Assembly: GCF_036556685.1 (NCBI RefSeq)
Contig: NZ_CP140614.1
Location: forward strand, 1,240,001 to 1,304,000
Origin: Sulfurospirillum sp. 1612
Lineage (GTDB): Bacteria; Campylobacterota; Campylobacteria; Campylobacterales; Sulfurospirillaceae
Direction of reading: 5' to 3'
Length of the DNA stretch: 64,000 nt
Shown: one piece after another, positions 1-56,378 of the stretch
Layout: every line of letters starts with the position of its first letter
How positions within the stretch are numbered: position 1 is the stretch's first letter
Position numbers and translations under genes: made by a program
Notes under the pieces: model-generated
What the model was told of the DNA's origin: nothing
The model's input: only the letters and a program-made list of their open reading frames with translations
Databases searched by the model: none

Positions 1-1
1 T

Positions 2-94
2 GAGGCCATATTATTTGAAATGTTGATGTTTGATAAACGTGAAGCATTACTAGATGCTTTTTTCAAAAATAAGGAGTTAAAAAATGATTATTGA
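2..94 (+). CDS. C-terminal end of an unidentified gene of the virus-like element (partial)
   Basis: An open frame enters from the left edge and stops at 94, giving about 30 residues rich in Leu, Phe, Lys and Asp. It overlaps the next start by 11 bases, the same tight packing used throughout this operon, which supports a real gene end. No family can be recognised from so short a tail. It is probably co-transcribed with the following genes. Confidence 0.4.
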   Translation, partial: EAILFEMLMFDKREALLDAFFKNKELKNDY

Positions 95-1074: not shown

Positions 1075-1634
1075 ATAAAGGAGCGGAAAAAGTAACGGAT
1101 AATGGCGTAGATATGGATATTCCTTTTGATGACATAAAAAGCACGAAGGAAGATATAACCAGGACTGAGTTAATGCAGAAGACGGGCAAAGAATTGGCAA
1201 AAATCGCCCTCCCCTATACAAATTTAAAAGAAGTTACATTAACAAAATTAAGCAAAGCCGAACTTTGCGACATAATACTAACAAAAGGAGCAAATAGAGA
1301 GCAAACAGAGCCAAAGGCAAGAGCAAACAGAGCCAAAAGCGATAGCGAGGCGATTATTGATACATTTTTGGCTATTGCAGAGAGTTTTAAGCTAAAGAGA
1401 GAGCAAGAGCCGCTTAATGCAGCAGCAAAACAGATTTTTAAAAATAATGCAGTCAATATCGTTGATAAAAAGGTCGAAGATGAAACAGTAAGTAGCCACG
1501 GCGTTAATACGGCAGTCGTAATTGTAGCGGGTGCATTTTTGGCTATTGATGGGATTATAGGCTTAGCGAATATTCCAACATTTTTAGGAAAGTTAAAAAG
1601 TAAATTTAATGCTAATAGAACAAAGACAAAATAA
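1071..1634 (+). CDS. Membrane-anchored protein of the virus-like element, function unknown
   Basis: The 187-residue protein has a soluble, charged N-terminal region of about 140 residues. A hydrophobic segment lies at about 145-170 (with the stretch VVIVAGAFLAIDGIIGLA) before a basic tail. It starts on the last codons of the preceding gene and ends 26 bases inside the ATPase gene, so it belongs to the same translationally coupled operon. No known family is recognised. A virion membrane or packaging-vertex role is plausible because it directly precedes the ATPase. Confidence 0.6.
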   Translation: MNKGAEKVTDNGVDMDIPFDDIKSTKEDITRTELMQKTGKELAKIALPYTNLKEVTLTKLSKAELCDIILTKGANREQTEPKARANRAKSDSEAIIDTFLAIAESFKLKREQEPLNAAAKQIFKNNAVNIVDKKVEDETVSSHGVNTAVVIVAGAFLAIDGIIGLANIPTFLGKLKSKFNANRTKTK

Positions 1635-2265
1635 AATTATTACAGTCATAGGGCATAAGGGCTATGGAAAGACAGCTTTAACAGAAGCACTTATGCTCAT
1701 GTACAATAAGCCGACTATAATTGCAGATCCACGATTTCAATATTCTACATTTCAAAATCGACGGTTAAGTTTTCAATCCGTTGGAAAGTTTAGAAAGTGG
1801 ATATATAACACGGCAAATTTCAAAGTTTTTTATAAATACAAGTTAGAACTAATCGTTAATGCTTTTGATGATACTTTTGATGAACTTGCAAGTATCGTTG
1901 CACAGATGAGATCTTTGATGTTTGTCGTCGATGAAGTAGATATGTTTTTAGATCCTCGGGCTACAAAAAAGAACTCCTTGAACAAGATTATACAATATGG
2001 TAGGCACCACGAGATTGACATAATATCCACTTCACGTAGGCCGGCAAACATCTCGCGCAACTTGACATCACAAACAGATATTTTTTATTTTTCACGGTTG
2101 CGCGAACCTACTGATAAATTATATATAAAGCAAGCGATCGGGGCTGAATATGTTAGTTTAGTTGAAAATTTAGATCGCTTCAGTTTTTTAGAGTTTGAAG
2201 ATGAAGAACATCATAAGATCATTACTACAAGTAAAAATGATCTTGAAATATTACAAAAAGGATAA
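1609..2265 (+). CDS. FtsK/HerA-type genome packaging ATPase
   Basis: The 218-residue P-loop ATPase has Walker A GHKGYGKTA at residues 15-23 and Walker B LMFVVDEVD at 103-111. A downstream STSRRP motif near 140 resembles the arginine-containing segment of the FtsK-HerA group, which includes the packaging ATPases of PRD1, PM2 and other double-jelly-roll viruses. It is small, as those enzymes are, and lies just upstream of the capsid gene. It probably drives DNA into preformed capsids. A Zot-type secretion ATPase of a filamentous phage is the main alternative; the capsid neighbour argues against it. Confidence 0.75.
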   Translation: MLIEQRQNKIITVIGHKGYGKTALTEALMLMYNKPTIIADPRFQYSTFQNRRLSFQSVGKFRKWIYNTANFKVFYKYKLELIVNAFDDTFDELASIVAQMRSLMFVVDEVDMFLDPRATKKNSLNKIIQYGRHHEIDIISTSRRPANISRNLTSQTDIFYFSRLREPTDKLYIKQAIGAEYVSLVENLDRFSFLEFEDEEHHKIITTSKNDLEILQKG

Positions 2266-2523: not shown

Positions 2524-3477
2524 ATGGCAAGAACATTTAAGAGAAAAGAAGGATCATTATCTTTTACCGCATCAACTCAAACAAGATTACAGTTATCACG
2601 AAACTATCACGTTGAGAGTTATTTAGTAAAGATCAAAGTGACACATACTAACGGGGCAAGTCCTAAGTTTTACAATGAAGGCGTATTGAGTTTAATTAAC
2701 GGCATCCAGCTTGTCGGAAATGGTAACGAAAATATTAAACAGATACCAGGAAATAAATTGTACATTGATGCAATTTTATCAAATGGAAAGCAAGGTAAAA
2801 CCGTACTTGACACAACAGCAAGCACAAGCGGCTTAGTGTCTTATGTATGGGCAAAGATTAACTTATCAATGCCAAACAGTGTACGCCCATGGGATACCAT
2901 TTTAAATACTGGAGTTTTCCAGAGTTTAGATCTAATTGTAGATTGGGGATCTAGTGCAAATATGGGCGAAGATATTACAATCACGGCGGCAGATATGACA
3001 GTTTATAGCAACCAGCTTATTGGTTATACACGCGGCAAAGGTGAAGTGATTAAATATTACGAAGAAACCGCACTCAAAGAAGAGGTAACAAGCACAAACA
3101 GCGAGTTTACAATCACATTACCAATTAACAAACTATATAGATCACTAGTTGTCGCCGCTACCGTTGATAATATTAGATCCGGTAATGTCATCAAAGGCCT
3201 AAAAGTAAAAAGTGGCACAACTGTGATTGTTGATTGGGATAGTGAAGCGCTTAATGAGTTTAACAAAGAACATTTTAGAATTGAAGGCGATCAAGATTTC
3301 ACCGGTATTTATGTGATTGATTTTGCAGAACGTGGAAGATTAAGCGACGTTTTGAATACTCTAACCGGAGGTTTCAACACTTTAGAGCTTGTGCTTGATG
3401 TTGAAAAACAATCAGGGTCAAATTTTGTACAAGTTTATAGTGATACAGTAAAACAAACATCAATCACGGAGGCTTAA
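2524..3477 (+). CDS. Major capsid protein, probable double jelly-roll fold
   Basis: The 317-residue protein has no signal peptide or membrane helix and is rich in beta-forming residues throughout, falling into two similar-sized beta-rich halves (about 10-165 and 175-310). The N-terminal half has a basic start, a strand with LVKIKVTHTNG near residue 34, and a following LINGIQLVGNGN motif near 57. This pattern is seen in double-jelly-roll capsid proteins of the PM2/PRD1 lineage. Size (PM2 P2 is about 270, PRD1 P3 about 395 residues), position after a packaging ATPase, and the swarm of tiny membrane proteins all agree. Structure prediction would settle the fold. Confidence 0.72.
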   Translation: MARTFKRKEGSLSFTASTQTRLQLSRNYHVESYLVKIKVTHTNGASPKFYNEGVLSLINGIQLVGNGNENIKQIPGNKLYIDAILSNGKQGKTVLDTTASTSGLVSYVWAKINLSMPNSVRPWDTILNTGVFQSLDLIVDWGSSANMGEDITITAADMTVYSNQLIGYTRGKGEVIKYYEETALKEEVTSTNSEFTITLPINKLYRSLVVAATVDNIRSGNVIKGLKVKSGTTVIVDWDSEALNEFNKEHFRIEGDQDFTGIYVIDFAERGRLSDVLNTLTGGFNTLELVLDVEKQSGSNFVQVYSDTVKQTSITEA

Positions 3478-7329: not shown

Positions 7330-7360
7330 TTTCTCAAAATTTTGTATCAAAAGGTTTATC

Positions 7361-7759
7361 ATGATAAAAATACTTATCTCAACAATTGCTATATCTGCCC
7401 TATTCTTTGGATGCGCAAGCAAAGAGCCATTATCTACCGTAGAAGCAACCGATTACGCAATGAGTTGTAACGCATTGATAAGTGAAATTAGCAACATAAG
7501 ATCACAACTTAAAACAGAAGAGGACAAAAATCTAGCTAAAAATATAGTTGGAAAGACTCTAACATTAGGAATATATAGCGCAAATGATGACAAAGCACTA
7601 CTTTTAAGAGAGCGTGCAAAGAGTTTACAGCTTATTTATACCATAAAACAAGCTAAAAATGAATGTAAACAATTAACCGAAAAAGATCTAAAAGTAGATA
7701 GTATGCCAGTGCATGAAATAAAAAACATAAAAACTCAAACAAATGAGCTAAAAAATTAA
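7361..7759 (+). CDS. Small lipoprotein of the virus-like element
   Basis: The 132-residue product has a signal peptide ending in a lipobox (LFFGC, Cys18), so the mature protein should be lipid-anchored at the cell envelope. The rest is mostly helical and charged, with further cysteines near residues 36 and 81 of the precursor. It has its own extended -10 promoter and lies outside the structural operon. A prophage-encoded lipoprotein can serve in superinfection exclusion or in modifying the host envelope, but no family is recognised. Confidence 0.6.
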   Translation: MIKILISTIAISALFFGCASKEPLSTVEATDYAMSCNALISEISNIRSQLKTEEDKNLAKNIVGKTLTLGIYSANDDKALLLRERAKSLQLIYTIKQAKNECKQLTEKDLKVDSMPVHEIKNIKTQTNELKN

Positions 7760-7919
7760 TTTCGCGCGGAAACTTAACATATAAATAAAAATATATTCAA
7801 TTTTACCGTAATAGATTAATTCTTTAATAGTAAAATTGAATAATCTTTGAAATTTAATACCAACATACCAATACATAATAAAAAAAGATTGTAGGGCATT
7901 TTAGAGAGGTTTTTTTATC

Positions 7920-7970
7920 ATGATAAACTTCAAAATTCAAAACCATCTAATCATAAACCGCATAGATTAA
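7920..7970 (+). CDS. Possible 16-residue leader peptide
   Basis: ATG at 7920 follows AGAGAGG (7903-7909) with a long T-run between, and the frame runs 16 codons before TAA. It sits just ahead of the structured segment at 7979-8030, the classic position for a leader peptide. There is no direct evidence that it is translated. Confidence 0.2.
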   Translation: MINFKIQNHLIINRID

Positions 7971-7978
7971 GTGCTTTT

Positions 7979-8030
7979 GCCTCAAGCAAAACACCAAAAC
8001 ACAGTCGTAAGACTGTTTCCTTATTGAGGC
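7979..8030 (+). other. Structured segment: closing stem and GTAA-tetraloop hairpin
   Basis: An outer 7-base stem (GCCTCAA near 7979, TTGAGGC near 8024) encloses an inner hairpin ACAGTC-GTAA-GACTGT near 8000-8015. The inner loop is a GNRA tetraloop. A further small hairpin (GGCG-TAG-CGCC) abuts it. This may be a structured RNA, an attenuator or a single-strand origin. It is not a standard terminator because no T-run follows. Confidence 0.35.
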
Positions 8031-8125
8031 GTAGCGCCGCGAGAAATCAAAAATCGACAATAAATATAAATTATTATATATCTAAAATATCTATCAAAAA
8101 AAGACTTTGTATATATATAGGATAG

Positions 8126-8206
8126 CTAGTGTCTGTTAGACACCAGAAAATTGCTAGCTAGTGTCTGTTAGACACCAGCTAGTGTCTGTTAGACACCAGC
8201 TAGCAA
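8126..8206. repeat. Three copies of a 21-bp palindromic repeat
   Basis: Identical 21-bp units lie at 8126-8146, 8158-8178 and 8179-8199; the last two are directly abutting. Each unit is itself palindromic, with core GTGTCT-GTT-AGACAC and flanking CT/AG pairs. The pair at 8158-8199 is enclosed by larger arms (8151-8166 and 8191-8206), so the whole segment is also an inverted repeat. This looks like a multi-site binding region for a dimeric protein, for example a replication initiator, repressor or recombinase. Confidence 0.75.
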
Positions 8207-8299
8207 CGTATAGATTACAGAAAATAAATTTGATGATTTTTAAAAAAATTAAGCTAAGTTTAAAAAATTTAATATTAGAATTGTCTCTTAAGTTTCAAA

Positions 8300-8341
8300 G
8301 CTACGAAGAGTAGCCGTGTAATGCTTGCAACAAAACACGGC
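8300..8341 (+). promoter_or_regulatory. Two alternative hairpins ahead of the ORF at 8373
   Basis: GCTAC-GAAGA-GTAGC (8300-8314) and GCCGTGT (8313-8319) with ACACGGC (8335-8341) are two perfect stems that share bases 8313-8314, so they compete at their junction. A strong ribosome site (CGGAGGT, 8361-8367) follows. This suggests conditional control of the downstream ORF. Confidence 0.35.
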
Positions 8342-8372
8342 CTACAGATACAACCTATTACGGAGGTCATAA

Positions 8373-8615
8373 ATGTATTACGAACGAATTATATCTACAA
8401 ATGCTTTTAATCCCCTTAAATATCATAAAAAATCAAAATTAACCTTAAGCGATAAAAACGTTATAAAGTTTAAAGTAAATTTTTTAAAATGCCATATTTA
8501 TAGTAGTTTTGCACAGTTGGCAACTATAATTTCCAAACTATTATATAAACCTCTCAATGGCCTATCGGGCAACATACCATTGGTGTTCTACTGGCTTTTT
8601 GAGAATGCCGTGTAA
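8373..8615 (+). CDS. Short ORF at the element/chromosome junction, probably truncated
   Basis: The frame has an excellent ribosome site (GGAGGT, 8362-8367) and an elaborate leader, as expected of a real gene. The first 35 residues are polar and natural-looking. From about codon 40 the sequence becomes hydrophobic, and the frame then runs antisense into the 3' end of the M23 peptidase gene. I infer that a longer viral gene was cut at the integration or rearrangement point near 8490-8530. No family can be named from the remaining N-terminus. Confidence 0.4.
   Translation: MYYERIISTNAFNPLKYHKKSKLTLSDKNVIKFKVNFLKCHIYSSFAQLATIISKLLYKPLNGLSGNIPLVFYWLFENAV
8498..8529. other. Inverted repeat at the right boundary of the element
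   Basis: TTATAGT (8498-8504) and ACTATAA (8523-8529) are perfect 7-base arms around an 18-base spacer. They fall where coding character changes from element to chromosome. This could mark an attachment site; no second copy is visible because the left end is outside the window. Confidence 0.2.
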
Positions 8616-35121: not shown

Positions 35122-37827
<2,706 letters not shown>

Positions 37828-37835
<8 letters not shown>

Positions 37836-38841
37836 TACAGAATTTAAAAACAGAGTGTATGGATGTGTAGTGGTAAAAGCGATTAATGCAAATTATAATG
37901 CAGATTTCAGTGGGTTGCCTAGAAGATTGAAAAGTGATGGTAGTTTTTATGCTACGGACAAATCTTTTAAGTGGTTGGTTAGAAACTATATTAAGAAAAA
38001 TTATAGTCATGAAAAAGTGCTTTTTACAAAAGTTTTTGATGATAAATTAAACACAATGAAATTAAAAGAGGCTTTTGAAAGTTTGAGTGATGAGAAAATC
38101 AATAAAGACAATATGAAAGATACTCTTTTTCCAAAACTTTTAAATTTTATCGATATAAGACTTTTTGGTGCAGTATTCTCTCCAGAAGGAAAAAAAGACA
38201 ATAATATATCAATACATGGCAATGTTCAAATTAATCATGCAACAGATTTGTATAAAAAAGGGCGTGTGTATACTGATGAAATATTAGCACCATTTACAGC
38301 AATCGGTAGTATGAGCAAAGCTACAGAGGCTCACTATATCCACAACTTTTCAGTCAATCCAAAAAATTTATCAAGTTGGAAAAATATTTTTAAGAAAGAT
38401 GCAGAAACTTCAAAACAGGAAACTTTGCTTGATGATGATGTGAAAAATGATACATTCAAGCTTTTATCACAAAATGATATTGCAATCCTAAAAAACTCGT
38501 TTAATAATGCTGCAACATTTTATGATTCTCACTCAAAAGCTGGTGTAGAAAATGAGCTCTCAATTTATGTAACATTAAAAGAAACATCAACCTTAACCTT
38601 GCCAAGTTTAGCTCAATTTATAGCATTTGAAAAAGGAAAAGAGAACGAAAATAATTCATTTGATATAACTAAACTTATCAATTATTTATCTAAATATGAG
38701 GAGCAAATAAAGTCTATAGATATTTATTACATCGATGAGCTTTTAAATGTTATAAATAGTAGTAATGAATTATCAGCTATCATACATAAACATGATTTAT
38801 TAGAAGTCTTAGAAGTGAATGAAAATGAAAAAACTTATTAG
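37828..38841 (+). CDS. cas7: Cas7 backbone subunit of type I-B Cascade (Csh2-like)
   Basis: ATG at 37828 follows GAGGAG at 37814-37819; an upstream GTG is less likely. The 337-residue RAMP-like protein has the conserved LFGAVFSPEG near 120 and NVQINHATDLYKKGR near 138, matching Csh2/Cas7b. Multiple copies coat the crRNA spacer. It overlaps cas5 by about 20 bases. Confidence 0.87.
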
Positions 38842-39574
38842 TTTTACAATCAAAGCAGAATTTGGATTTTTTAAAAAGCCAGATATAAACGATAAAATTT
38901 TTATCTCTTACAATATGATTCATAAGCCCTCACTTTTAGGAATATTAGGTGCAATCATGGGTTATGATGGTTATGCTCAAAGTAAAGATAAAGCACAACT
39001 CCCAGAATATTATCAAAAGTTAAAAGATATAAGAGTGGCTATTGCCCCAAGCTCAGAAAATGGTGGAATTTTTAAAAAAGAGTTTATTTTATTTAACAAT
39101 ACCACCAATGGACAAACAGCAAATATTACAGAACAAACGCTAGTGAATCCCGCTTATAGAATTTATCTTGAACTTGATGATGCAAATGAAGAGCATACTA
39201 AATTAATAGATAGTTTGAAAAATCATAGAGCAGTTTATCTTCCATATATGGGCAAAAATGAATTTTCTTTGTGGTGGGATAATTTTCATGAACATGGAAG
39301 ATGTAACGAGCTTCAAGAAAAAGAAAAATTTGAAATAAAAACGATAATTGTAAAAGATGAAAATTTTGTGCTAAAAAACAGTGGATATAAAGAGCGAACT
39401 ACAAATTATTTTTATCTTTTTGAGAGATTGCCTATTGGATTTGATAAGCAACTCAAGCAATATAGTTATCAAGATTTTTTATACACGAATGCAGTATTTA
39501 AATCAAATGAATTTGGAAAATTATGCCTTATTAATCTTTATGAATGTGATGAGGGTGTGATATGTCTATTTTAA
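38819..39574 (+). CDS. cas5: Cas5 subunit of type I-B Cascade
   Basis: The 251-residue protein has a Cas5 start (LISFTIKAEFGFFKKPDIN) and the HKPSLLGILGAIMGYDGYA segment near 37-55, which matches the family's PS-x-x-GILGA motif. ATG at 38819 or 38825 may be used. Cas5 holds the 5' tag of the crRNA. It overlaps cas3 by 13 bases. Confidence 0.86.
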   Translation: MKMKKLISFTIKAEFGFFKKPDINDKIFISYNMIHKPSLLGILGAIMGYDGYAQSKDKAQLPEYYQKLKDIRVAIAPSSENGGIFKKEFILFNNTTNGQTANITEQTLVNPAYRIYLELDDANEEHTKLIDSLKNHRAVYLPYMGKNEFSLWWDNFHEHGRCNELQEKEKFEIKTIIVKDENFVLKNSGYKERTTNYFYLFERLPIGFDKQLKQYSYQDFLYTNAVFKSNEFGKLCLINLYECDEGVICLF

Positions 39575-42195
39575 AATTTAGTGAGTTAGATATCAAGCTA
39601 ACAATAGATGATAAATATAAAGCACACAAAAGATGTATCGACAACAAAGTCATTAATGATAAAAATGTATGTGTTAAATTTGCAAAAGAGAGCCTCAAAG
39701 AACATATAGACTTGGTTTATGACTATTTTTTATTCTTAGTAGAGCAAAATGGTTTAGAAAATTATCTTGATAAACTTTTTGAACAGAGTATTAATCTCTT
39801 GGAAGATATAAAAGAGAAAATAGAGTTTGGTGATTTTGTAAAATATCTATTTGCAAAGGCTATCTATTGGCATGATATGGGGAAAATAAATCCTAATTTT
39901 CAAGTCGATAAGATGGGTAATGATAAATTTAAAAATATTGAACTATCAGAGAGTAGTAATCATTCGCCATTAGGGGCTTATCTGTTTATAAATCACTCTT
40001 TAGAAGAACTTTATGGTAAAAACTGGGATGAAGATGAGATAGAGATAATTGAAAGCATTGTCTATCTCTTTGGATATTTTATCTCTAAGCATCATGGCTC
40101 TCTTTATAAAAGTAGTGATTTTGAGTTCAGCGATGATTTAGAAGAGTTTTTAAAACTATTTGACATTGATAAAAATCTCATAAAAGTACACAAAGATGAA
40201 AAGAGAGTCTTTTCAAATATTTTTGATTATATTGAAGATAATAAAGATACGCTATTTTTGTTGTCAAAATCTCTCTTCTCACTCCTCATCATATCGGACT
40301 ACTACGCCACAGCTCAATTTATGAATTATGGCAATCAAAAAGAACTTGCGTATAAAGATTTTGGCTTAATAGATGCATTGTTTCGTGAAAAAGTTTATAC
40401 GGAATTTTATACTGATAAACTTGATGAAAATAATAAAAAGATAACATTTAATCAAGATTTAAAAGATATTACAGATATAGAAATTGGTTTTAATAAATTG
40501 GAAGAAAAATCAAATATAAATCTAAATATTTTAAGAAATAAACTTTTTTTAGAAGTGAGAGAAAACCTAAGAGCAGAACTCAAAAAAGAGAAGAAACAAA
40601 ACCTCTTTTACATCGAAGCTCCGACAGGTGCAGGAAAAACGAACCTTTCTGTCATGAGTGCCGTTGAGATTTTAAAAGAAGATGAGTCTATCAATAAGAT
40701 ATTTTATGTATTTCCATTTACTACACTTATCACCCAAACTTATGAGGCTATAAAAAATGTTTTAAATTTGGATAACTCACAGATGGTACAACTTCATTCA
40801 AAGGCAAAATACAACCAAAAAGAGGAAAGTAAAAAAGATGGTGTTTATGGTGATGAAAAAACAAACTTTTTAGATAATCAGTTTATGAATTATCCTATAA
40901 CACTCTTAAGTCATGTGAAGTTTTTCAATGTTTTAACAGGTGTTTCAAAAGATGATAACTATATCTTCCATCGTTTGGCTAATTCTATTGTAATTATAGA
41001 TGAGATACAGACTTATAATCCTAATCTTTGGTCAAGTATAGTTTATTTGCTTGATAGTTTTGCAGATAAATTTAATATGAAGTTTATTGTCATGAGTGCT
41101 ACTTTACCAAAGATAGGCGATATTTTAAATGAGCCAAATCATAAGTTTATAAAGTTAGTCACCCATAAAAAAGAGTATTTTTCAAATCCTAATTTTGGAG
41201 AGAGAGTTAAAATTTTTACAGAAGATAAAAAGATAAAAGAACCAAAAGATATTTATAAAAGGCTCCTTGAAGAGAGTAAAAATTATCAAAAACTAGAGAG
41301 TAATAAAACAGACAAAGTAAGAACTATCATAGAGTTTATTACCAAAAAAGGTGCTGATGAGTTTTATCAACATGCGAAAGACCACAACAAGCTTTTTGAT
41401 GAGATATTTATCTTAAGTGGTACAATTTTAGAGCCTAGACGAAAAGAGATTATAAACTTTCTTAAAAACACTAATGATAAAAACATTTTGTTAGTGACGA
41501 CACAAGTGGTAGAAGCTGGTGTGGATATAGATATGGATATAGGCTTTAAAGAAAAATCCCTCATAGATAGTGATGAACAGTTGGCAGGGCGTATCAATCG
41601 CAATAGTTCCAAAGAGGGAAATAAACTGTTTTTGTTTGAGATGACAAACGCAAAGGCGAAATTTGTTTACAAAGGCGATAAGAGATTAAATATATCAGTA
41701 GATGAAAATGTATTGGAAACTAAGGATTTTGACGCTTATTACAATCAAGTGATTGCGAAGATAAAAACATCAAACGACACGCCGTTTATCGAGGGATTAA
41801 AGAGCTATGTTGATCATATTAAAAATCTTAGATTTTCTGAATCTCATGTAAAAATTATAGATATGGAATCGCTGTCTGTTTTTGTACCGCATTGTGACGA
41901 AGCGGTTGAGATATGGGAAGAGTATGTCCAAACAATTAAAAATCAAGATGAAGATTATACTTCAAGACAAATAAAGCTACAAAATTTAGCTTCTAAAATA
42001 TCTCAATATACTTTTTCTTTGGCTGATTATAAAAATAGCGGAATTAACTACTTAAAGAATTATGGAGAAGAAAAATATGGATATTTATATCTAAAAGAAT
42101 GGGATACAGACTGTGACGGTAAAAAGCTTTATAGTTACAAAGACGGTTTGGATACAAGTGTGTTAAGAGGTGAATTTGTATCGATGATCATATGA
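39562..42195 (+). CDS. cas3: Cas3 nuclease-helicase (HD plus SF2)
   Basis: The 877-residue fusion has an N-terminal HD nuclease domain (WHDMGKINPNF near 111-121, SNHSPLGAYL near 133, KHHGS near 176) and an SF2 helicase. Helicase motifs are EAPTGAGKTNLS near 353, VIIDEIQTY, SATLPKI and LAGRINRNS near 674. It degrades DNA marked by Cascade. Both catalytic parts look intact. Confidence 0.95.
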   Translation: MSILKFSELDIKLTIDDKYKAHKRCIDNKVINDKNVCVKFAKESLKEHIDLVYDYFLFLVEQNGLENYLDKLFEQSINLLEDIKEKIEFGDFVKYLFAKAIYWHDMGKINPNFQVDKMGNDKFKNIELSESSNHSPLGAYLFINHSLEELYGKNWDEDEIEIIESIVYLFGYFISKHHGSLYKSSDFEFSDDLEEFLKLFDIDKNLIKVHKDEKRVFSNIFDYIEDNKDTLFLLSKSLFSLLIISDYYATAQFMNYGNQKELAYKDFGLIDALFREKVYTEFYTDKLDENNKKITFNQDLKDITDIEIGFNKLEEKSNINLNILRNKLFLEVRENLRAELKKEKKQNLFYIEAPTGAGKTNLSVMSAVEILKEDESINKIFYVFPFTTLITQTYEAIKNVLNLDNSQMVQLHSKAKYNQKEESKKDGVYGDEKTNFLDNQFMNYPITLLSHVKFFNVLTGVSKDDNYIFHRLANSIVIIDEIQTYNPNLWSSIVYLLDSFADKFNMKFIVMSATLPKIGDILNEPNHKFIKLVTHKKEYFSNPNFGERVKIFTEDKKIKEPKDIYKRLLEESKNYQKLESNKTDKVRTIIEFITKKGADEFYQHAKDHNKLFDEIFILSGTILEPRRKEIINFLKNTNDKNILLVTTQVVEAGVDIDMDIGFKEKSLIDSDEQLAGRINRNSSKEGNKLFLFEMTNAKAKFVYKGDKRLNISVDENVLETKDFDAYYNQVIAKIKTSNDTPFIEGLKSYVDHIKNLRFSESHVKIIDMESLSVFVPHCDEAVEIWEEYVQTIKNQDEDYTSRQIKLQNLASKISQYTFSLADYKNSGINYLKNYGEEKYGYLYLKEWDTDCDGKKLYSYKDGLDTSVLRGEFVSMII

Positions 42196-42218
42196 AAATT
42201 TTCTATAAATTAAAATAC

Positions 42219-42228
42219 ATGATATAAT
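42219..42228 (+). promoter_or_regulatory. Internal promoter ahead of the toxin-antitoxin pair
   Basis: An extended -10 box (TG-A-TATAAT, ending 42228) lies in the 63-base gap between cas3 and the antitoxin. It is the only sizeable gap between cas3 and cas4, and it would let the pair and the adaptation genes be transcribed independently of cas6-cas3. Confidence 0.5.
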
Positions 42229-42258
42229 ACTAATAGATTAATATATAAGGATTAAAAG

Positions 42259-42504
42259 ATGACTACTTATGGTGTAACAACAATCCAAAATAAACCATCC
42301 CTATTAAAGGAGATGGATGTAGCCCAAATCATAGATAAAAGAGCTCACAAAAGTGTAGGATATTTTATATCTGCAAAATATGAAAAATTTATCAGATCAG
42401 CGATTGAAGAAATAGAAAAAGCAAATAAAATAGAGAAGCTAAAAAAATTAAGAGCTCATCATGATTTAGAATTTTTAGAGCTTGGAGTTGATGATGGACT
42501 ATAA
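42259..42504 (+). CDS. Antitoxin of the MazF-type pair
   Basis: The 81-residue protein starts with a segment like Phd/YefM N-termini (YGVTTIQNKPSLLKEMD) and has a charged, helical C-terminal half. It precedes the toxin and overlaps it by 11 bases, the standard order. AAGGAT-type ribosome site (42248-42253) is present. It should neutralise the toxin and may repress the pair's own promoter. Confidence 0.72.
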   Translation: MTTYGVTTIQNKPSLLKEMDVAQIIDKRAHKSVGYFISAKYEKFIRSAIEEIEKANKIEKLKKLRAHHDLEFLELGVDDGL

Positions 42505-42829
42505 AAAAGGAGATATTGTCACTATAAATTTCAATCCTAAAAAAGGTGATGAGGTGGGCAAGACAAGACCTGCTTTGATTATCTCAGGAGATGAAGAGAA
42601 TAAAATTTTAGATACTATCATCGTTATGCCTTTATCTACCCAGCTTTTAAATGATGTGGAACCTTTTAGATTAAGAATTATTAAAAGAGATGGCTTAAGG
42701 GAAGATTCGGATCTACTCGTAAATCATATAAGAACTATTTCAAAGAAAAGAGTTGGTATCAAAATAGCTGCTATTAGTGAAGAAGAGTACCAAAGTGTGA
42801 TAACAAATCTATGCAAAAACTTTCAATGA
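42494..42829 (+). CDS. MazF/PemK-type endoribonuclease toxin
   Basis: ATG at 42494 has the best spacing from GGAG at 42484-42487 and gives 111 residues. The family pattern is clear: KKGDIVTINFNPKKGDEVGKTRPALIIS near 4-31 in total, then VMPLSTQ near 50 and HIRTISKKRVG near 84. MazF toxins cut mRNA at short motifs. It is embedded between cas3 and cas4 in the same orientation and overlaps cas4 by 4 bases. Confidence 0.88.
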   Translation: MDYKKGDIVTINFNPKKGDEVGKTRPALIISGDEENKILDTIIVMPLSTQLLNDVEPFRLRIIKRDGLREDSDLLVNHIRTISKKRVGIKIAAISEEEYQSVITNLCKNFQ

Positions 42830-43317
42830 ATATCACCGGAACGCTTATTAACTACTATTTCCATTGCAAAACGCAATGCTGGCTTCACGCCAATCGCTTA
42901 AATCTTGAAGACAATAGCGAAGATGTGCGCATCGGCAAAGTCTTACATGAGATCAATGAAGAAAAGAGCAAAAAAACTGAAATCAAGATCGATAACATCA
43001 AGATAGACAAAATCACAAAAGACTACTTGAGTGAGTTCAAAAAATCCGATTCCGATCCTGAAGCGGTAAAGTGGCAAGTGTTACTCTATCTGTATAAACT
43101 GAAGCAAAAAGGCGTGATACGCAAAGGCAAAGTCGAATATCATGAAAAAAATCACAATACAAAAACAGAGATATTTGAGTTAGATGAGCAAAATGAACAA
43201 GCGCTCCTCGATGTCCTTGCTCAGATCAATACACTCATCGACCTCCCAGCTCCGCCCACACCACAGTTCGAAAATAAATGTAAAAAATGTGCTTATTATG
43301 AATACTGTTATATCTAA
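42826..43317 (+). CDS. cas4: Cas4 adaptation exonuclease
   Basis: ATG at 42826 overlaps the toxin stop (ATGA) and gives the usual Cas4 start (MNITGTLINYYFHCKTQCWL, with the first cluster Cys). His is in GKVLHE near 42, an E-x-K motif in SEFKKS and Q in KWQVLLYLY follow, and the C-terminal CKKCAYYEYC near 153 completes the iron-sulfur site. Cas4 trims and orients prespacers. Its codon use resembles cas1 and cas6 rather than cas3. Confidence 0.88.
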   Translation: MNITGTLINYYFHCKTQCWLHANRLNLEDNSEDVRIGKVLHEINEEKSKKTEIKIDNIKIDKITKDYLSEFKKSDSDPEAVKWQVLLYLYKLKQKGVIRKGKVEYHEKNHNTKTEIFELDEQNEQALLDVLAQINTLIDLPAPPTPQFENKCKKCAYYEYCYI

Positions 43318-43325
43318 GGAAAACT

Positions 43326-44638
<1,313 letters not shown>

Positions 44639-44819
44639 ACTATAATTTTCCAACCGTTTTTGAAGTATGCCATCATAGATGTGCTAAAATACGGTATTAA
44701 AATGTGTTATTTAGCTTATCATTGTCAATTCATATTTGTGATTGGAAAAAATCACAATGTCCACTGTATTTAGGAAGTTTTGATTTAGAATAAAAATGTT
44801 AGAATGCGCAAACGATTTA
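44639..44819 (+). promoter_or_regulatory. CRISPR leader
   Basis: This 181-base AT-rich stretch lies between cas2 and the first repeat. An inverted repeat with perfect 8-base arms (TTGTGATT at 44736-44743, AATCACAA at 44750-44757) sits near its middle. A -10-like TAGAAT occurs at 44800-44805 just before the array. Leader placement here is supported by repeat decay at the opposite end. Confidence 0.7.
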
Positions 44820-47800
44820 CTCGAACCGAAACATATGATGTATTTAAATCTGAAACAGCTTTTGCATCAAGAGGAAGTTGCCCTCTCGAACCGAAACATA
44901 TGATGTATTTAAATTTTACTGCGCCTTGGGTTAATGGTACTGTTATTGAGCTCGAACCGAAACATATGATGTATTTAAATTTTTTGCTTTGATCTCTATT
45001 CCTTTTTATTATTTCCTCGAACCGAAACATATGATGTATTTAAATATTCTTAAATCACGTATTTTTGTTTCTTCTACTCCTCGAACCGAAACATATGATG
45101 TATTTAAATTAAATCTTCTTATACTTCTTTTCCATCAAATAACGTCTCGAACCGAAACATATGATGTATTTAAATAGCAACTTGTGAAAGCTCTCCAACA
45201 TTTGTCAAAACTCGAACCGAAACATATGATGTATTTAAATAATAAAGTCAGCTCACAATCTAACCCAGACCAGGAACTCGAACCGAAACATATGATGTAT
45301 TTAAATCCGTCTAAAGATCCACAAGTACCGCATGTAATATTTCTCGAACCGAAACATATGATGTATTTAAATTCATCAAGAAAATTTGTATAGTATAGAT
45401 GCGGTATCTCGAACCGAAACATATGATGTATTTAAATGTTGATTTTTAATTGCTTCAGCAGCATCTGCACTACTCGAACCGAAACATATGATGTATTTAA
45501 ATAAATGCCCTACAATGATTTTTTTATATATATTTGAGCTCGAACCGAAACATATGATGTATTTAAATTTACTTAACATGTAAACTCTTGTTATACTATT
45601 ATCCTCGAACCGAAACATATGATGTATTTAAATTTTTATATATGCAGCACCTTTTATCTATTTAATGAGCTCGAACCGAAACATATGATGTATTTAAATT
45701 ATGTCTGTTATTTTCAGCACTCCCACATTATTGAACTCGAACCGAAACATATGATGTATTTAAATAACATTGAAGGGAACATCACGATATCACAAGTTAA
45801 CTCGAACCGAAACATATGATGTATTTAAATCTTTTTGAAGCTCTGCCACACGAGTAAATTTATCTCTCGAACCGAAACATATGATGTATTTAAATATTCT
45901 TTTGCATAGTCGATGTGTTTTTGCAACATCTCGAACCGAAACATATGATGTATTTAAATCAAAAATTTAATTCTTGTAGTGAAAGTGTACATAACTCGAA
46001 CCGAAACATATGATGTATTTAAATCATCAAAAGTGATAGATTATAGCGAAAAAGAAATAGCTCGAACCGAAACATATGATGTATTTAAATGCCATTGGAG
46101 ATTTGCTTAAGTGGCTAGGCTTCACTCGAACCGAAACATATGATGTATTTAAATATTTTTGAGAGATAAAAAAGTTTTACAATCAAATAACTCGAACCGA
46201 AACATATGATGTATTTAAATCTTAATCCTGAAAGTGTAATTGTAGGCACTTCTTCTCGAACCGAAACATATGATGTATTTAAATGAAGATTAACCTCTAA
46301 CGGTGCCACCCTGCAAAGGCTCGAACCGAAACATATGATGTATTTAAATAATTTTCTGCCTCTGTCCCAGTTTGGAAGCGTTATGCTCGAACCGAAACAT
46401 ATGATGTATTTAAATGGGCGCCGATAGCCACGGGGACAGCGAAGTCGATACCTCGAACCGAAACATATGATGTATTTAAATGGATTAGCTGATTTAGTTT
46501 CTACACTAATAAAACCTCTCGAACCGAAACATATGATGTATTTAAATATCGAGGACGGATACGCAACATTGACATTGGCAACTCGAACCGAAACATATGA
46601 TGTATTTAAATCCACGTCTAATATCCCACCCCTGAGACTGCATCCGTCTCGAACCGAAACATATGATGTATTTAAATTTAAGTTTTTGAGATTTAGATTC
46701 ATTGGCGCGTACGCTCGAACCGAAACATATGATGTATTTAAATAACTATAATACTGAATTCGAAAGAAGAACGGTAGTGCTCGAACCGAAACATATGATG
46801 TATTTAAATTGGAGAAATTCCGAGAATGTACATGCTGCAAATTCAACTCGAACCGAAACATATGATGTATTTAAATTTTTCATAATCGATGTTTGATAGT
46901 ACTCGAATATAACTCGAACCGAAACATATGATGTATTTAAATTGTTATTCTCCTATATCATCGATGTCTGCTGCGCCTCTCGAACCGAAACATATGATGT
47001 ATTTAAATAGTCCATTCAACCGTTTCTTGCACGGAGCAGTATCTCGAACCGAAACATATGATGTATTTAAATTCTTCGCAACGACAATGGCGACAATTCC
47101 CGATACTGCTCGAACCGAAACATATGATGTATTTAAATACGCTAAAGTTGTATGTGCTTTTTTCTCCAGTTTCGCTCGAACCGAAACATATGATGTATTT
47201 AAATAGTCTTATTTTCCCCCCGATTTGACACCAGACCAAACTCGAACCGAAACATATGATGTATTTAAATATAGAATGTTGAATGCAATGACTACCGATA
47301 TGGCACCTCGAACCGAAACATATGATGTATTTAAATAGGACATCAGCAACCGAAACAGCAATATAACCAACCCTCGAACCGAAACATATGATGTATTTAA
47401 ATCGTTTTCTTTTCCGTATGTTCTATACTCCACTATACTCGAACCGAAACATATGATGTATTTAAATTCAGCTTTGTGGTATAATACTTTTTGGTTTTAA
47501 ACTCTCGAACCGAAACATATGATGTATTTAAATTTTTGAACAATACCAAAATGTTTCAAATCAAGAGCTCGAACCGAAACATATGATGTATTTAAATAGA
47601 GCAAACAACACTGAGGTGGTAGAACAAGAAGATACTCGAACCGAAACATATGATGTATTTAAATGAAAACTTTTTTGGGAAATATTGTTGTGCTTCATCA
47701 ACTCGAACCGAAACATATGATGTATTTAAATTCGGGGATAGAGTTTCTATCGCCCTCCTCTGCAAAAGGCTCGAACCGAAACATATGATGTATTTAAATA

Positions 47801-50800
47801 TGGCCAATGTGCTTCTGTTTGTTCTTACGGTTATCTCGAACCGAAACATATGATGTATTTAAATATTATCACAGACCCCCCTTATGGGATGGACTTAACT
47901 CTCGAACCGAAACATATGATGTATTTAAATGTTGCCTTTAGTGACTAACAATTAAATTTAAGAGCTCGAACCGAAACATATGATGTATTTAAATTTAATT
48001 ATTACACTTTTGAATCTTATGACGAGGTAACTCGAACCGAAACATATGATGTATTTAAATTCTCTTATGGATGTTAAAATGCCTTTTGGAGTTACTCTCG
48101 AACCGAAACATATGATGTATTTAAATTCTGATATATTAGTTAATGTTCCAGCTGGGCATGCTCGAACCGAAACATATGATGTATTTAAATCCTATTCAGC
48201 GCCTTCAAAATTGGCTACCTGGTTTCCTCGAACCGAAACATATGATGTATTTAAATTTGACATAAATATTTTGAGCTCTGGCGTCCGTGCCTACTCGAAC
48301 CGAAACATATGATGTATTTAAATCTTTTAGCCATAATGTTATAATTACAAATAGAGTGACTCGAACCGAAACATATGATGTATTTAAATCAACTTGCGAC
48401 ATATTAGTTTTTTCTATATTGTTAACTCGAACCGAAACATATGATGTATTTAAATTGATTTTAAATTCTAGGCGATAAAATTATACGCAGCTCGAACCGA
48501 AACATATGATGTATTTAAATCGATGGACGTCGTGACGGGCTCCTTTAAGAACTTCTCGAACCGAAACATATGATGTATTTAAATAATCGATAAGCCTTTA
48601 AAAGTATTAGACGGAAATTCTCGAACCGAAACATATGATGTATTTAAATTCTACACCCAACCATAAACCGAAGTTATTTACAGCACTCGAACCGAAACAT
48701 ATGATGTATTTAAATATGAAGCCGCACTCTATATATGTATGTGTAGACGCTCGAACCGAAACATATGATGTATTTAAATTATGTAGAATAGTTGCCCTCT
48801 CTTGGGACATCTGCTCGAACCGAAACATATGATGTATTTAAATATTATTAGTAGGTGTAACGGATAGAATACATAAAACTCGAACCGAAACATATGATGT
48901 ATTTAAATTTTGTTTCTGTTATATACTCTCTGTCTTTTAGCATCTCGAACCGAAACATATGATGTATTTAAATACATCAGCAAAAGAAAAAGAAATTATA
49001 AGAGTTAACTCGAACCGAAACATATGATGTATTTAAATCCTAGTGCTTATCTTTTTAATCAACCAGATGCAGACTCGAACCGAAACATATGATGTATTTA
49101 AATTACACTTGACATTGTATCTCAAGCTGTTTTCTGATGCTCGAACCGAAACATATGATGTATTTAAATAACAACATATACAGACATGGCGGTAGCGGTT
49201 AAGCTCGAACCGAAACATATGATGTATTTAAATTAGTCAATATCATACTCTTGTGCAAAAATTATCTCTCTCGAACCGAAACATATGATGTATTTAAATG
49301 GCTAAAGTTTCGGAGCAACACAAAAACGTAGCGGCTCGAACCGAAACATATGATGTATTTAAATCACCATAGGTTATAGTGTTACACACCATAGGTTTTC
49401 TCGAACCGAAACATATGATGTATTTAAATCCGTCTAAAGATCCACATGTACCGCATGTAATATCTCGAACCGAAACATATGATGTATTTAAATGCAGCTA
49501 CCCACTCACCAAACTGATTTTTATATTCTCGAACCGAAACATATGATGTATTTAAATTAATATGGTCGTCGAGTAGGAAACAATTCCCACCCCTCGAACC
49601 GAAACATATGATGTATTTAAATAAGCTTATTTATAGCTATTTAAATGCCCTACAAGACTCGAACCGAAACATATGATGTATTTAAATGGCTCAGGATTTG
49701 TGACAGTAGGCGGAACACAAACTCGAACCGAAACATATGATGTATTTAAATTGTTACAAAAGATCCTTCGGGTGCTGTAACAAATACTCGAACCGAAACA
49801 TATGATGTATTTAAATGCTACAACTGCCGCATCTGCTGATTTATCTTTTTTACTCGAACCGAAACATATGATGTATTTAAATTACAAATCAATATCTAAA
49901 GTTTCTTTAGCCATAGCTCGAACCGAAACATATGATGTATTTAAATACTCTGGCCTGCAAAAAGTCTATACCTCGAACAATCTCGAACCGAAACATATGA
50001 TGTATTTAAATTTTTAAATCCTAACAATGTATATACTCGGTGTGGCTCGAACCGAAACATATGATGTATTTAAATGTATGTATTAAATCATCATCTATTT
50101 TCTCACTCTCTCGAACCGAAACATATGATGTATTTAAATAGTAAAGAAGAAACACCCCTATTTTTTAACCTTTTCTCGAACCGAAACATATGATGTATTT
50201 AAATTAGATAGGAAGTGTTTTCGCTTTAGATTTTCTAAACTCGAACCGAAACATATGATGTATTTAAATATTTAAGCTATTTACTTATCGATTTTGGATT
50301 CGACTCGAACCGAAACATATGATGTATTTAAATATTATAATAATAACAGCAGTAAGACCAAACTTTTTACTCGAACCGAAACATATGATGTATTTAAATC
50401 AAAAGTAGTGGGTGCAAATGGCGATGTAGTCCGCAGCTCGAACCGAAACATATGATGTATTTAAATTCTGTGGGGAATGGTTAAAAAATGATTTGTTAAA
50501 ACTCTCGAACCGAAACATATGATGTATTTAAATAAAAGTATGTATAACGATATTAAGCAAAAAAAAAGGCTCGAACCGAAACATATGATGTATTTAAATT
50601 TTTAAATCCTAACAATGTATATACTCGGTGTGGCTCGAACCGAAACATATGATGTATTTAAATTTAATAGAATTTGTTGCATTAATTTCTTGTGTTACTC
50701 GAACCGAAACATATGATGTATTTAAATCAATATTTGTGGATAGCTTTATTTTGTGTTAATGTCTCGAACCGAAACATATGATGTATTTAAATTTAGCAAG

Positions 50801-52101
50801 TTTGTCGTTATTTATTAATTTATTGTCTCGAACCGAAACATATGATGTATTTAAATTCTTTTACTCTTTTTATTTATTTTTTCATAATCCCTCGAACCGA
50901 AACATATGATGTATTTAAATTCATTTATATTGAATTTTAAATACATAGAATCAGCTCGAACCGAAACATATGATGTATTTAAATCAGTACTGGAAAGATA
51001 CGGAACATTTTTCACACTAGCTCGAACCGAAACATATGATGTATTTAAATGAGACTTTTTCTAAATCAACTATATACATCTTCACTCGAACCGAAACATA
51101 TGATGTATTTAAATTTATTATTAATATTACTAATCGGAGCTGAAGTATTCCTCGAACCGAAACATATGATGTATTTAAATACTACGGGTATTAGTGCAAA
51201 ATTTTCTGATGGTAACTCGAACCGAAACATATGATGTATTTAAATATCCTTCTGCTATTTTAAGCGGTGATGGTTCTAAACTCGAACCGAAACATATGAT
51301 GTATTTAAATTCGAATCCCAAATCGATAAGCAAATAGCTTAACTGTCTCGAACCGAAACATATGATGTATTTAAATACTTCTTGAAGGGGGATGAGTTTA
51401 TCGACCCCTTCTCTCGAACCGAAACATATGATGTATTTAAATAGAAACACCGTATCCATTTTATTGAGAAGAGTCAATACTCGAACCGAAACATATGATG
51501 TATTTAAATGTCAAAGTCTCATCATTTGATGATAATTCAACTCTTCTCGAACCGAAACATATGATGTATTTAAATACTGTGAGCGGCAAAAAGATAATAT
51601 CTCAAAATGATACTCGAACCGAAACATATGATGTATTTAAATCGGGGGATGGCTTTGACGTTCCTTACGAGGTGTAACTCGAACCGAAACATATGATGTA
51701 TTTAAATGACCATCGCAATTTTTTGGATAAACTCTTCCGAACCCTCGAACCGAAACATATGATGTATTTAAATATCCCTAATATACCTTTTAGTTATAGA
51801 GCTACATGCTCGAACCGAAACATATGATGTATTTAAATTATATAAAAGGCTTGTCATTTTCAAGAATTAATCTCTCGAACCGAAACATATGATGTATTTA
51901 AATATATTACAGAAAAGTTAAAAAGAGTGTAACAAATAACTCGAACCGAAACATATGATGTATTTAAATTTTGCACGGCTTTATTCGAATTTTTAGGACT
52001 CATAGCTCAAACCGAAACATATGATGTATTTAAATTACCAATCAACTCCGACCGCAGTCATTCTTCTTTTACTCGAACCGAAACATATGATGTATTTCAG
52101 T
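44820..52101 (+). CRISPR. Type I-B CRISPR array, 112 repeats and 111 spacers
   Basis: The 30-bp repeat begins CTCGAACCGAAAC, continues ATATGATGT and ends ATTTAAAT. I counted 112 copies by reading. Spacers are 34-38 bases, averaging about 35. Nearly all repeats are identical. Only the last two differ: one has a G-to-A change near its start (about 52008-52037) and the last ends CAGT-like instead of AAAT (52072-52101). The distal end is therefore at 52.1 kb. Exact and near-duplicate spacers occur and are listed as findings. Confidence 0.99.
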
Positions 52102-52217
52102 CAAATATTTAACTTTTAATTTTTACATCATGATACATTACTTACATAAAGTAACGTAAGGTGTAATTAAGTAGATAGGGTATATAATTCTCACTAAATT
52201 AACTTTAAAGGTAACGC

Positions 52218-53363
52218 ATGAATGATTTCACCTATTACAATCCAACAAAAATAGAATTTGGCAAGGGCAAAGAAAACAATATTGGTGCTTATATCAAAGC
52301 ATCAGGGATTCAAAAAATACTTCTAGTTTACGGTGGAGGTAGTATCAAAAAAACAGGTCTTTATGAGAGAATCATCACCTCTTTAAAAAAGAGTAATATA
52401 GAATTTGAAGAACTCTCAGGAGTAGTAAGCAATCCATTGTTAAGCAAAGTAAATGAAGGGATTGCACTCGCAAAAAATCACGGTATCCAAGCTGTCTTAG
52501 GTGTCGGTGGTGGTTCTGTGGCAGATAGTGCCAAATCAATCGCAGCGGGCGCTAAATATGATGGTGATGTCTGGGACTTTTTCATCAACAAAGCTAAAAT
52601 AGCCGATGCATTGCCCGTATTTACGGTCATGACACTCTCAGCAACAGCCAGTGAGATGAATGGCAATGCAGTCATCATCAATGATGAAACCAAACAAAAA
52701 TACTCTATCGCTTCAGTATTGGTCAATCCAAAGATATCCATCATCAATCCAGAGCTCATGGCCACCGTCAGCCAAGATTATCTCGCATATTCGGCGGTCG
52801 ATATCATCGCACATTCTATCGAAGTTTATTTCACCGCGACAGTACATCCACATTTTAATTCAAGAATTGTCGAATCCATCATCAAAACCGTCATGGAAAC
52901 AACAGAAATATTGATAAAAAATCCAGCAGATTATGACGCACGAGCTGAATTTGCATGGACAGCGATACAAGCACTCAATGGCCTCACTCCAGCAGGTACC
53001 GGTGGTGGAAGCTTTCCAAATCATATGATTGAGCATGCCCTATCAGCACTCTACAATGTCCCTCATGGTGCTGGATTGGCAGTGGTAATCCCCGCATGGA
53101 TGAAATGGTACAAAGCAAACAACATCGCCCAATTTCAACGCTTTGCCAAAGAAATCTTCAACACGCAAGATGCTGATGAAGGCATCATAAAACTTGAAAA
53201 TTGGTTTGCAAAAATTGGAGCACCCGTCACTTTGGCACAACTTAATATCCCAAGAGAAGGAATCACAGCACTTGCCACCAACGCCAATGCTCTAGCAAGC
53301 GTTTGGGGTTTGGGTGATTTTTATACCCAAGAAGTTATCGCTGAAATATTAAAAAAAGCCTGA
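52218..53363 (+). CDS. Iron-containing alcohol dehydrogenase (BDH/YqhD-like)
   Basis: The 381-residue protein has the group III dehydrogenase layout. The NAD(P)-binding GGGSVADSAKSIA is near 97-109, and the iron-binding residues occur in the D-x-x-xH, H and HGAGLAVVIPAW segments (about 195-290). It reduces aldehydes or oxidises alcohols, probably butyraldehyde-like or general aldehydes. The gene starts 116 bases after the array and has a TATAAT-like box near 52180. Confidence 0.9.
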   Translation: MNDFTYYNPTKIEFGKGKENNIGAYIKASGIQKILLVYGGGSIKKTGLYERIITSLKKSNIEFEELSGVVSNPLLSKVNEGIALAKNHGIQAVLGVGGGSVADSAKSIAAGAKYDGDVWDFFINKAKIADALPVFTVMTLSATASEMNGNAVIINDETKQKYSIASVLVNPKISIINPELMATVSQDYLAYSAVDIIAHSIEVYFTATVHPHFNSRIVESIIKTVMETTEILIKNPADYDARAEFAWTAIQALNGLTPAGTGGGSFPNHMIEHALSALYNVPHGAGLAVVIPAWMKWYKANNIAQFQRFAKEIFNTQDADEGIIKLENWFAKIGAPVTLAQLNIPREGITALATNANALASVWGLGDFYTQEVIAEILKKA

Positions 53364-53391
53364 TATTTCATCTCACAAAGGTATCATACTC

Positions 53392-53427
53392 ATCAGGAGA
53401 AATTTTATATTTTTCCTGATTTTCTCT
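53392..53427 (+). terminator. Terminator after the alcohol dehydrogenase
   Basis: Arms of 11 bases (53392-53402 and 53410-53420, one G-T pair) close a 7-base loop and run into a T/C-rich tract. Confidence 0.7.
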
Positions 53428-53523
53428 TCTTTAGTACTAGTATTTATAAAATATTAATCAATAAATCACTTTATTGTACAATCTCACAAAAAATCGGCCG
53501 ATTTTTATGCTACAATCTTATAC

Positions 53524-55815: not shown

Positions 55816-55853
55816 TTTTAGATATAATTCAAAAAATTTTTAGAAGGAATACT

Positions 55854-56345: not shown

Positions 56346-56351
56346 ACCGCT

Positions 56352-56378
56352 AAAAAGAGTGATTATTTCACTCTTTTT
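56352..56378. terminator. Bidirectional terminator between ppiB and the DedA gene
   Basis: AAAAAGAGTGA (56352-56362) and TCACTCTTTTT (56368-56378) are perfect 11-base arms with a 5-base loop, with A- and T-runs on both sides. It serves both convergent genes. Confidence 0.88.

What the first reader, a model, noticed from the sequence alone, without database searches (positions are those of the whole stretch)
8126..8206. Triple 21-bp palindrome nested in a larger palindrome beside an AT-rich tract
Three identical palindromic units, two of them abutting and enclosed by 16-base outer arms, sit next to the most AT-rich stretch of the element. The arrangement fits a replication origin with iterons, a repressor operator cluster or a recombinase site. 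No gene explains it.
Basis: seen in the sequence. Interest (0 to 1): 0.55.

Follow-up and report, generated by a model that had tools for sequence, protein, structure and literature searches.

The report
Control array of split phage operon
Three identical palindromes near one end of a small tailless-phage prophage most likely form the control site of the phage's replication genes, and because the phage's integration site lies inside the same gene group, integration would cut the replication gene off from its own switch.

Summary
In detail: three identical 21-bp imperfect palindromes at 8126-8199, dyads 32 and 21 bp apart (about 3 and 2 helical turns), found nowhere else in the genome.

The element is a 9,159-bp PM2-like (tailless, double-jelly-roll) prophage inserted at the host site difH beside xerH. 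Three other complete prophages share the layout with unrelated palindromes. Each of the four has exactly one tandem-palindrome array, 317-498 bp inside its right att site (0 of 100 shuffles); the last dyad lies 10.5-20 bp before a -10-like box.

In the excised circle, a 75-80 residue ORF right of the array reads through the att core and ends at or near the start of a replication-initiator gene, in 4 of 4. Best reading: an operator array heading a replication operon that integration splits.

Open: nothing here tests binding or transcription; the three relatives have a small, weakly ribbon-helix-helix-like gene after the array, but the window's element has none; origin iterons remain a serious rival. 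A REP-like repeat is ruled out; a Xer crossover site is not supported.

The parts
8126..8146 (+). palindromic unit 1 (21 bp)
   Evidence: only 3 copies in the genome
8158..8178 (+). palindromic unit 2, dyad 32 bp from unit 1
8179..8199 (+). palindromic unit 3, abuts unit 2, dyad 21 bp on
8151..8206 (.). composite palindrome enclosing units 2 and 3
   Evidence: (I2)
8040..8125 (.). AT-rich tract (81% AT) left of the array
8206..8282 (.). AT-rich tract (86% AT) right of the array
8209..8215 (+). candidate -10 box TATAGAT, 20 bp after the last dyad; TATAAT stands at the matching place in three relatives
   Evidence: the generic promoter scan did not list a + strand promoter here
8362..8367 (+). 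GGAGGT, likely ribosome site of the leader ORF
   Evidence: similar GGAGGT in G386 and G361
8373..8615 (+). leader ORF as read in the prophage (80 aa); in the joined circle it crosses the att core and ends 4 nt inside the start codon of rep (also 80 aa)
8517..8544 (.). right att site (difH-like, TTGGC left arm); the left copy is 9,159 bp away, outside the window, beside xerH
1..94 (+). 3' end of the winged-helix initiator gene rep (starts 547 bp left of the window)
1609..2265 (+). packaging ATPase
   Evidence: phrog_2666 E 6.6e-22, AAA_22 E 2.8e-6
2524..3477 (+). major capsid protein, PM2 P2-like
   Evidence: Pfam P2_C E 5.4e-5, 23.5 bits, cut-off 25; Foldseek of a low-confidence model

Best explanation
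The three palindromes are an operator array at the promoter of a replication-control operon of a PM2-like prophage. In the excised circle the order is: AT-rich tract, palindrome array, -10 box, (in three of four elements) a small gene, possibly of the ribbon-helix-helix kind, a leader ORF, and the winged-helix initiator gene rep, which begins at or close to the leader's stop. Proposed working: dimers of an element-encoded protein bind the phased dyads, hold down the promoter and so set the level of rep. The attachment site lies inside the leader ORF. Integration at the host dif site by the host's Xer recombinase therefore leaves array, promoter and leader start at the right end of the prophage and rep at the left end, cut off from that promoter; excision rebuilds the operon. 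Shown: array, uniqueness, att sites, shared order, read-through ORFs. Inferred: promoter activity, the binding protein, translational coupling, and that integration silences rep.
For: Dyads 32, 21 bp apart, 3.05 and 2.0 turns. Exactly one tandem-palindrome cluster in each of 4 complete elements; none in the 8 flanks, in window 8601-44000 and 50000-64000, in a 20-kb host stretch, or in 100 shuffles; the repeats of the three relatives were first seen with a general repeat search. Last dyad 20, 10.5, 13 and 13 bp before TATAGAT or TATAAT. An ORF reads across the joined att core in 4 of 4 and ends +4, -14, +8, +8 nt relative to the first base of the rep start; shuffles do so in 774, 629, 89 and 45 of 5,000, combined P 0.0014. 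G386 and G361: initiators 68% identical, small proteins 43%, arrays unrelated.
Against: No small ribbon-helix-helix-like gene in the window's element; its att-spanning ORF matches no family, does not align with the relatives' small proteins, and a low-confidence model shows only helices. The ribbon-helix-helix call for the relatives is weak: sub-threshold for G220, E 0.13 for G386, nothing for G361. The generic promoter scan lists no + strand promoter between 8100 and 8372. In the window the -10-like box is TATAGAT, not TATAAT. In G220 the ORF stops 14 nt short of rep. G386 and G361 are related, so the combined P is optimistic.
Confidence: 0.55

Rival explanations
1. Replication origin: the palindromes are iterons bound by the winged-helix initiator, as in the phage lambda origin, and the AT-rich tract beside them is where the strands open. 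It can coexist with the operator role.
For: The initiator matches HTH_36 (E 4.5e-10), RepL (E 1.8e-4) and, below cut-off, phage replication protein O (E 0.006), and PHROG replication initiation families. Lambda iterons are 19-bp imperfect inverted repeats beside an AT-rich region (PMC7466680, passages). AT tracts flank the array. DnaD-like winged-helix initiators occur in Vinavirales (PMC9502842, passage).
Against: The array abuts a -10-like box in 4 of 4 elements. G386 and G361 have initiators 68% identical but unrelated arrays, though a few residues can change recognition. GC skew gives no origin signal at the array. Lambda's iterons lie inside the initiator gene, these do not.
Confidence: 0.3
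2. The repeats act as RNA or single-stranded hairpins, for example a terminator of leftward transcription coming from the neighbouring chromosomal gene.
For: The minus strand folds better as RNA (z -8.07) than the plus strand (z -5.49); the terminator scan lists a minus-strand site at 8182-8154 with a short T run.
Against: The T run is weak (CAATTTTCTG). The relatives carry different palindromes at the same place next to a -10-like box, which fits protein sites better. No credible Rfam family: sub-threshold hits are mostly microRNA models.
Confidence: 0.06
3. Accessory sequences of Xer recombination that bind a helper protein and give direction to integration or excision.
For: The array lies 317, 451, 498 and 496 bp from the right att core in four elements, in hosts with two kinds of dif.
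Against: Genes and a -10-like box stand between array and att. That accessory sites of plasmid dimer systems adjoin the core is recalled, from no call.
Confidence: 0.05
4. A REP-like repeat dispersed over the chromosome.
For: Short palindromes in a non-coding gap.
Against: Only these three copies in 2,377,931 bases with up to 3 mismatches.
Confidence: 0.01

Closest known systems
PM2-like prophages at dif in Vibrio (phage NO16, PMC9966536; marine Vibrio, PMC11630473; passages read)
   Same: About 10-kb tailless prophages with dif-like att sites at a chromosome dimer-resolution site; host Xer use proposed for NO16.
   Different: Here difH/XerH hosts (G220: classical dif) and no recombinase found in the element. 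In marine Vibrio the tailless prophages at dif regularly carried integrase genes, and whether they use host recombinases was left open. No palindrome array or split replication operon appears in the passages read.
Phage lambda origin and O protein (PMC7466680, passages)
   Same: Several imperfect inverted repeats beside an AT-rich tract; winged-helix initiator with weak similarity to O.
   Different: Repeats lie outside and well upstream of the initiator gene and beside a -10-like box.
copG-repB of pMV158 and copB-tap-repA of R1 (PMC5717011, passages)
   Same: Repressor gene cotranscribed with the initiator; in R1 initiator synthesis is coupled to a leader peptide.
   Different: The att site splits the operon here; a repressor gene was not found in the window's element.
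PrpA antitoxin of plasmid pMBL6842 (PMC7848731, passages)
   Same: A ribbon-helix-helix protein represses its own promoter and also binds iterons against the initiator, so one protein may serve both readings.
   Different: No toxin partner was looked for here; binding untested.
S004-repA of Salmonella Genomic Island 1 (PMC7826253, passages)
   Same: A leader ORF overlaps repA and its translation is needed for RepA, in an integrative element that replicates after excision.
   Different: Its origin lies near the 3' end of repA; the passages read do not place the att site inside the leader.
Integration-dependent immunity of mycobacteriophage BPs (PMC4557955, abstract and outline)
   Same: attP lies inside a coding gene, so integration changes the product and serves as a switch.
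   Different: In BPs the gene is the repressor; here it is an ORF of unknown function before the initiator.

Membership tests
[quoted passage not shown]
   P2_C E 5.4e-5, 23.5 bits against a cut-off of 25; a model with mean pLDDT 56.6 finds PRD1 P3 (E 1.9e-9) and PM2 P2 (E 1.7e-5) but with low TM-scores of 0.26-0.36
PM2-like (Vinavirales-type) prophage | packaging ATPase encoded near the capsid gene | tested here: met
   phrog_2666 E 6.6e-22, one gene upstream of the capsid gene
PM2-like (Vinavirales-type) prophage | circular genome of about 10 kb | tested here: inconclusive
   9,159 bp between att cores; circle inferred, not observed
PM2-like (Vinavirales-type) prophage | internal membrane, icosahedral virion | not testable with these tools
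   needs virions
dif-integrated element using host Xer | direct repeat of the host dif site at both ends | tested here: met
   exact core beside xerH in six relatives, which have no capsid match
dif-integrated element using host Xer | no recombinase of its own | tested here: met
   none among 17 of 19 element ORFs scanned with Pfam; two small ORFs not scanned
lambda-type replication origin | several imperfect inverted-repeat iterons beside an AT-rich tract | tested here: met
lambda-type replication origin | iterons inside the initiator gene | tested here: not met
   array lies upstream, outside rep
lambda-type replication origin | initiator binds the iterons | not testable with these tools
   needs binding assays
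CopG-repB-type autoregulated replication operon | small ribbon-helix-helix repressor gene before the initiator | tested here: not met
   not found in the window's element; weak in three relatives
CopG-repB-type autoregulated replication operon | operator at the promoter of the operon | tested here: inconclusive
   last dyad 10.5-20 bp before a -10-like box in 4 of 4; promoter activity untested
BPs-type integration-dependent switch | attP inside a coding gene | tested here: met
   ORF reads across the joined att core in 4 of 4 elements
BPs-type integration-dependent switch | the gene is the repressor | tested here: inconclusive
   no family match
difH recombination site | inverted arms TGAAAAC / TTTTCAAA around a hexamer | tested here: not met
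   the 21-bp unit does not resemble the consensus (PMC2731167, passages); the att site at 8517-8544 does, as a GG/CC variant
REP-like dispersed repeat | many copies across the chromosome | tested here: not met
   3 copies, all at this locus

The most novel reading that the evidence does not exclude
A group of tailless prophages uses its attachment site as a replication switch. attP sits inside the leader ORF of the initiator operon, so insertion at the host's dif site disconnects the initiator from its operator array and excision reconnects it. The operator palindromes change wholly from element to element, like immunity types, while the layout is kept.
Probability: 0.38. Interest if true: 0.7.

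Novelty: new variant of a known kind. Interest (0 to 1): 0.52.

Why it matters
Phages that insert at dif without a recombinase of their own carry an active replicon inside the chromosome and must keep it quiet. If the att site itself splits the initiator operon, silence follows from integration. The rule (att site inside the ORF before the initiator) is simple to test on other dif-inserted elements, and the exchangeable palindrome arrays would be the immunity types of a little-studied phage group.

Tried and rejected
Other copies of the unit: in 398 genomes of the order only one further site, with 3 mismatches, against 4 control matches; three exact 15-base matches in viral contigs were not followed. 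No match of the DNA in phage or plasmid records, of the capsid protein in phage records, or of the initiator in either. Viral contigs gave no capsid, initiator or ATPase relative, so the comparison set is small: 6 of 398 genomes have a capsid match, own genome included. Four have both ends and were counted; G001 (5.5-kb contig without ends) and G019 (left half only) were left out of the array count.

TTTACATGTAAA stands three times beside the cut-off G019 element but is scattered there (11 matches in 15 kb, 0.34 expected), so it was dropped. G001's two dif contigs looked like attL and attR; by eye they overlap and read as an empty site. GC skew as origin marker gave nothing. Sub-threshold Rfam hits (microRNA, CRISPR and RNase P models) were ignored. 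My first tandem-palindrome detector was too strict and found only G361; I loosened it once, after seeing the repeats, and it then found all four with no hit in the controls. Window 44001-49999 was left out of those controls because it looks like CRISPR repeats.

Full report
WHAT IS THERE. The three 21-bp units are as described, at 8126-8146, 8158-8178 and 8179-8199. An 18-base part with up to 3 mismatches is found only here in the window, 0.00 expected. In the genome (2,377,931 bases, one contig) only these three copies occur with up to 3 mismatches. The dyads are 32 and 21 bp apart, 3.05 and 2.0 turns of DNA, so they face nearly the same side, as expected of protein sites. AT tracts on both sides are among the five least stable 80-bp windows of the element, but not the most AT-rich.

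THE ELEMENT. DNA fetched from left of the window showed a 28-bp direct repeat at genome positions 1239358 and 1248517, 9,159 bp apart. The left copy lies beside a gene for a XerH-type recombinase (Phage_int_SAM_6 and Phage_integrase). The exact core TTGGAAACTATAATTTCCAAAC also stands beside xerH in six relatives, G003, G004, G008, G009, G013 and G026, none of which has a capsid match. It is a GG/CC variant of the published difH layout (PMC2731167, passages). The right copy has a deviating left arm (TTGGC), as a phage-borne half-site would. The element encodes a capsid protein resembling PM2 P2 (Pfam P2_C E 5.4e-5, 23.5 bits, cut-off 25); a low-confidence model finds double-jelly-roll coat proteins with low TM-scores. 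It also encodes a packaging ATPase and a winged-helix protein matching replication initiators. No recombinase turned up among the 17 of 19 element ORFs scanned. I read it as a PM2-like prophage inserted at dif. Such insertion is reported in Vibrio, where it is open whether host recombinases act (PMC11630473; PMC9966536; passages).

RELATIVES. A capsid profile search of 398 genomes of the order matched 6, own genome included. Three gave complete elements with two att sites: G220 (9,503 bp; a classical-type dif), G386 (9,295 bp) and G361 (9,161 bp), the last two at difH beside xerH. A general repeat search showed a tandem repeat near the right end of each: two 22-nt copies around CCCGTCG-AAAA-CGACGGG, three copies around GGTCA-TTT-TGACC (spacing 23, 25), three copies around GCAAA-A-TTTGC (spacing 23, 23). 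A purpose-written detector then found exactly one tandem-palindrome cluster in each of the 4 elements and none in 8 flanks, window 8601-44000, window 50000-64000, a 20-kb host stretch, or 100 shuffled elements. Window 44001-49999 was left out, and a stricter first version had found only G361. The arrays end 317, 451, 498 and 496 bp before the right att core in G000, G220, G386 and G361, and the last dyad is 20, 10.5, 13 and 13 bp before TATAGAT or TATAAT. The layout is kept, the letters are not.

WHAT FOLLOWS THE ARRAY. In G220, G386 and G361 a gene of 65, 92 and 95 residues follows. Evidence for a ribbon-helix-helix protein is weak: NikA-like E 0.0077 and DUF6290 E 0.0058, both under cut-off, for G220; Arc-like E 0.13 for G386; nothing for G361. 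The three align with each other at 31-44% identity to the first. The window's element has no such gene, and its att-spanning ORF does not resemble them. In all four, an ORF starts shortly before the right att core and continues across it when the ends are joined as in the circle. It has 80, 80, 76 and 75 residues in G000, G220, G386 and G361 and ends 4 nt inside, 14 nt before, 8 nt inside and 8 nt inside the initiator start. Shuffled left segments do this in 774, 629, 89 and 45 of 5,000, combined P 0.0014; G386 and G361 are related, so this is optimistic. In G019 the frame from att core to the ATGA at its initiator is open too, as in 21% of shuffles.

HOW IT MOST LIKELY WORKS. Phased dyads abutting a promoter-like box, at the head of genes that lead to an initiator, are best read as an operator array. 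The layout is like plasmid copG-repB and copB-tap-repA (PMC5717011, passages) and the SGI1 leader-repA pair (PMC7826253, passages). The initiators of G386 and G361 are 68% identical over both readable pieces while their palindromes are unrelated; their small proteins are 43% identical. This favours the small protein as reader of the array but does not prove it. The generic promoter scan did not list a + strand promoter in the window's gap, so the promoter there rests on the comparison. Because the att core lies inside the leader ORF, integration parts rep from array and promoter: that is read from the sequence. That it silences rep is inference.

RIVALS. Origin iterons remain serious: the units are like lambda iterons in kind (PMC7466680, passages) and the initiator is of that general kind. 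One protein may read both: PrpA, a ribbon-helix-helix antitoxin, represses its own promoter and binds iterons (PMC7848731, passages). Hairpin, Xer-accessory and REP readings are weaker, for the reasons given with them.

NOVELTY. The listings of the paper searches showed me no report of PM2-like prophages at difH, or of an att site inside the leader of a phage initiator; only part of each hit list was shown and the library lacks most subscription journals. attP inside a repressor gene is known from BPs (PMC4557955, abstract). I rate it a new variant of a known kind.

Noticed in passing
L107:6547-7161 (G386): The initiator gene of the G386 prophage is broken by one in-frame stop at codon 39.
   Followed up: partly
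L106:15591-15638, L107:15559-15588, L108:15050-15065: Perfect hairpins with loops CGGCAA (three) or TTGGCG (one) stand between the small gene and the leader ORF; they could be targets of an antisense RNA. The window has a different hairpin at about 8313-8341.
   Followed up: partly
window 7355-7368 and 7914-7927: A perfect 14-bp palindrome TTTATCATGATAAA occurs twice in the element, once over the start codon of the lipoprotein-like gene.
   Followed up: no
window 7960-8060: The plus strand folds well as RNA (z -2.80, 2 of 200 shuffles as good); no Rfam family.
   Followed up: partly
window 35158-47206: By eye a type I CRISPR-Cas locus with repeat arrays, with a MazF-like gene pair at 42259-42829 inside it.
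   Followed up: no
L100:6147-10000 (G036) and L099:4993-8109 (G006): Stretches of 3-4 kb lie between xerH and the dif core in two relatives, with a degenerate second dif half in G036: possible other elements at the same site.
   Followed up: partly
L009 (G019): TTTACATGTAAA with up to 1 mismatch occurs 11 times in 15 kb, 0.34 expected: a scattered palindrome in that genome.
   Followed up: partly
L019 (G026): The dif core is reversed relative to xerH compared with the other relatives.
   Followed up: no
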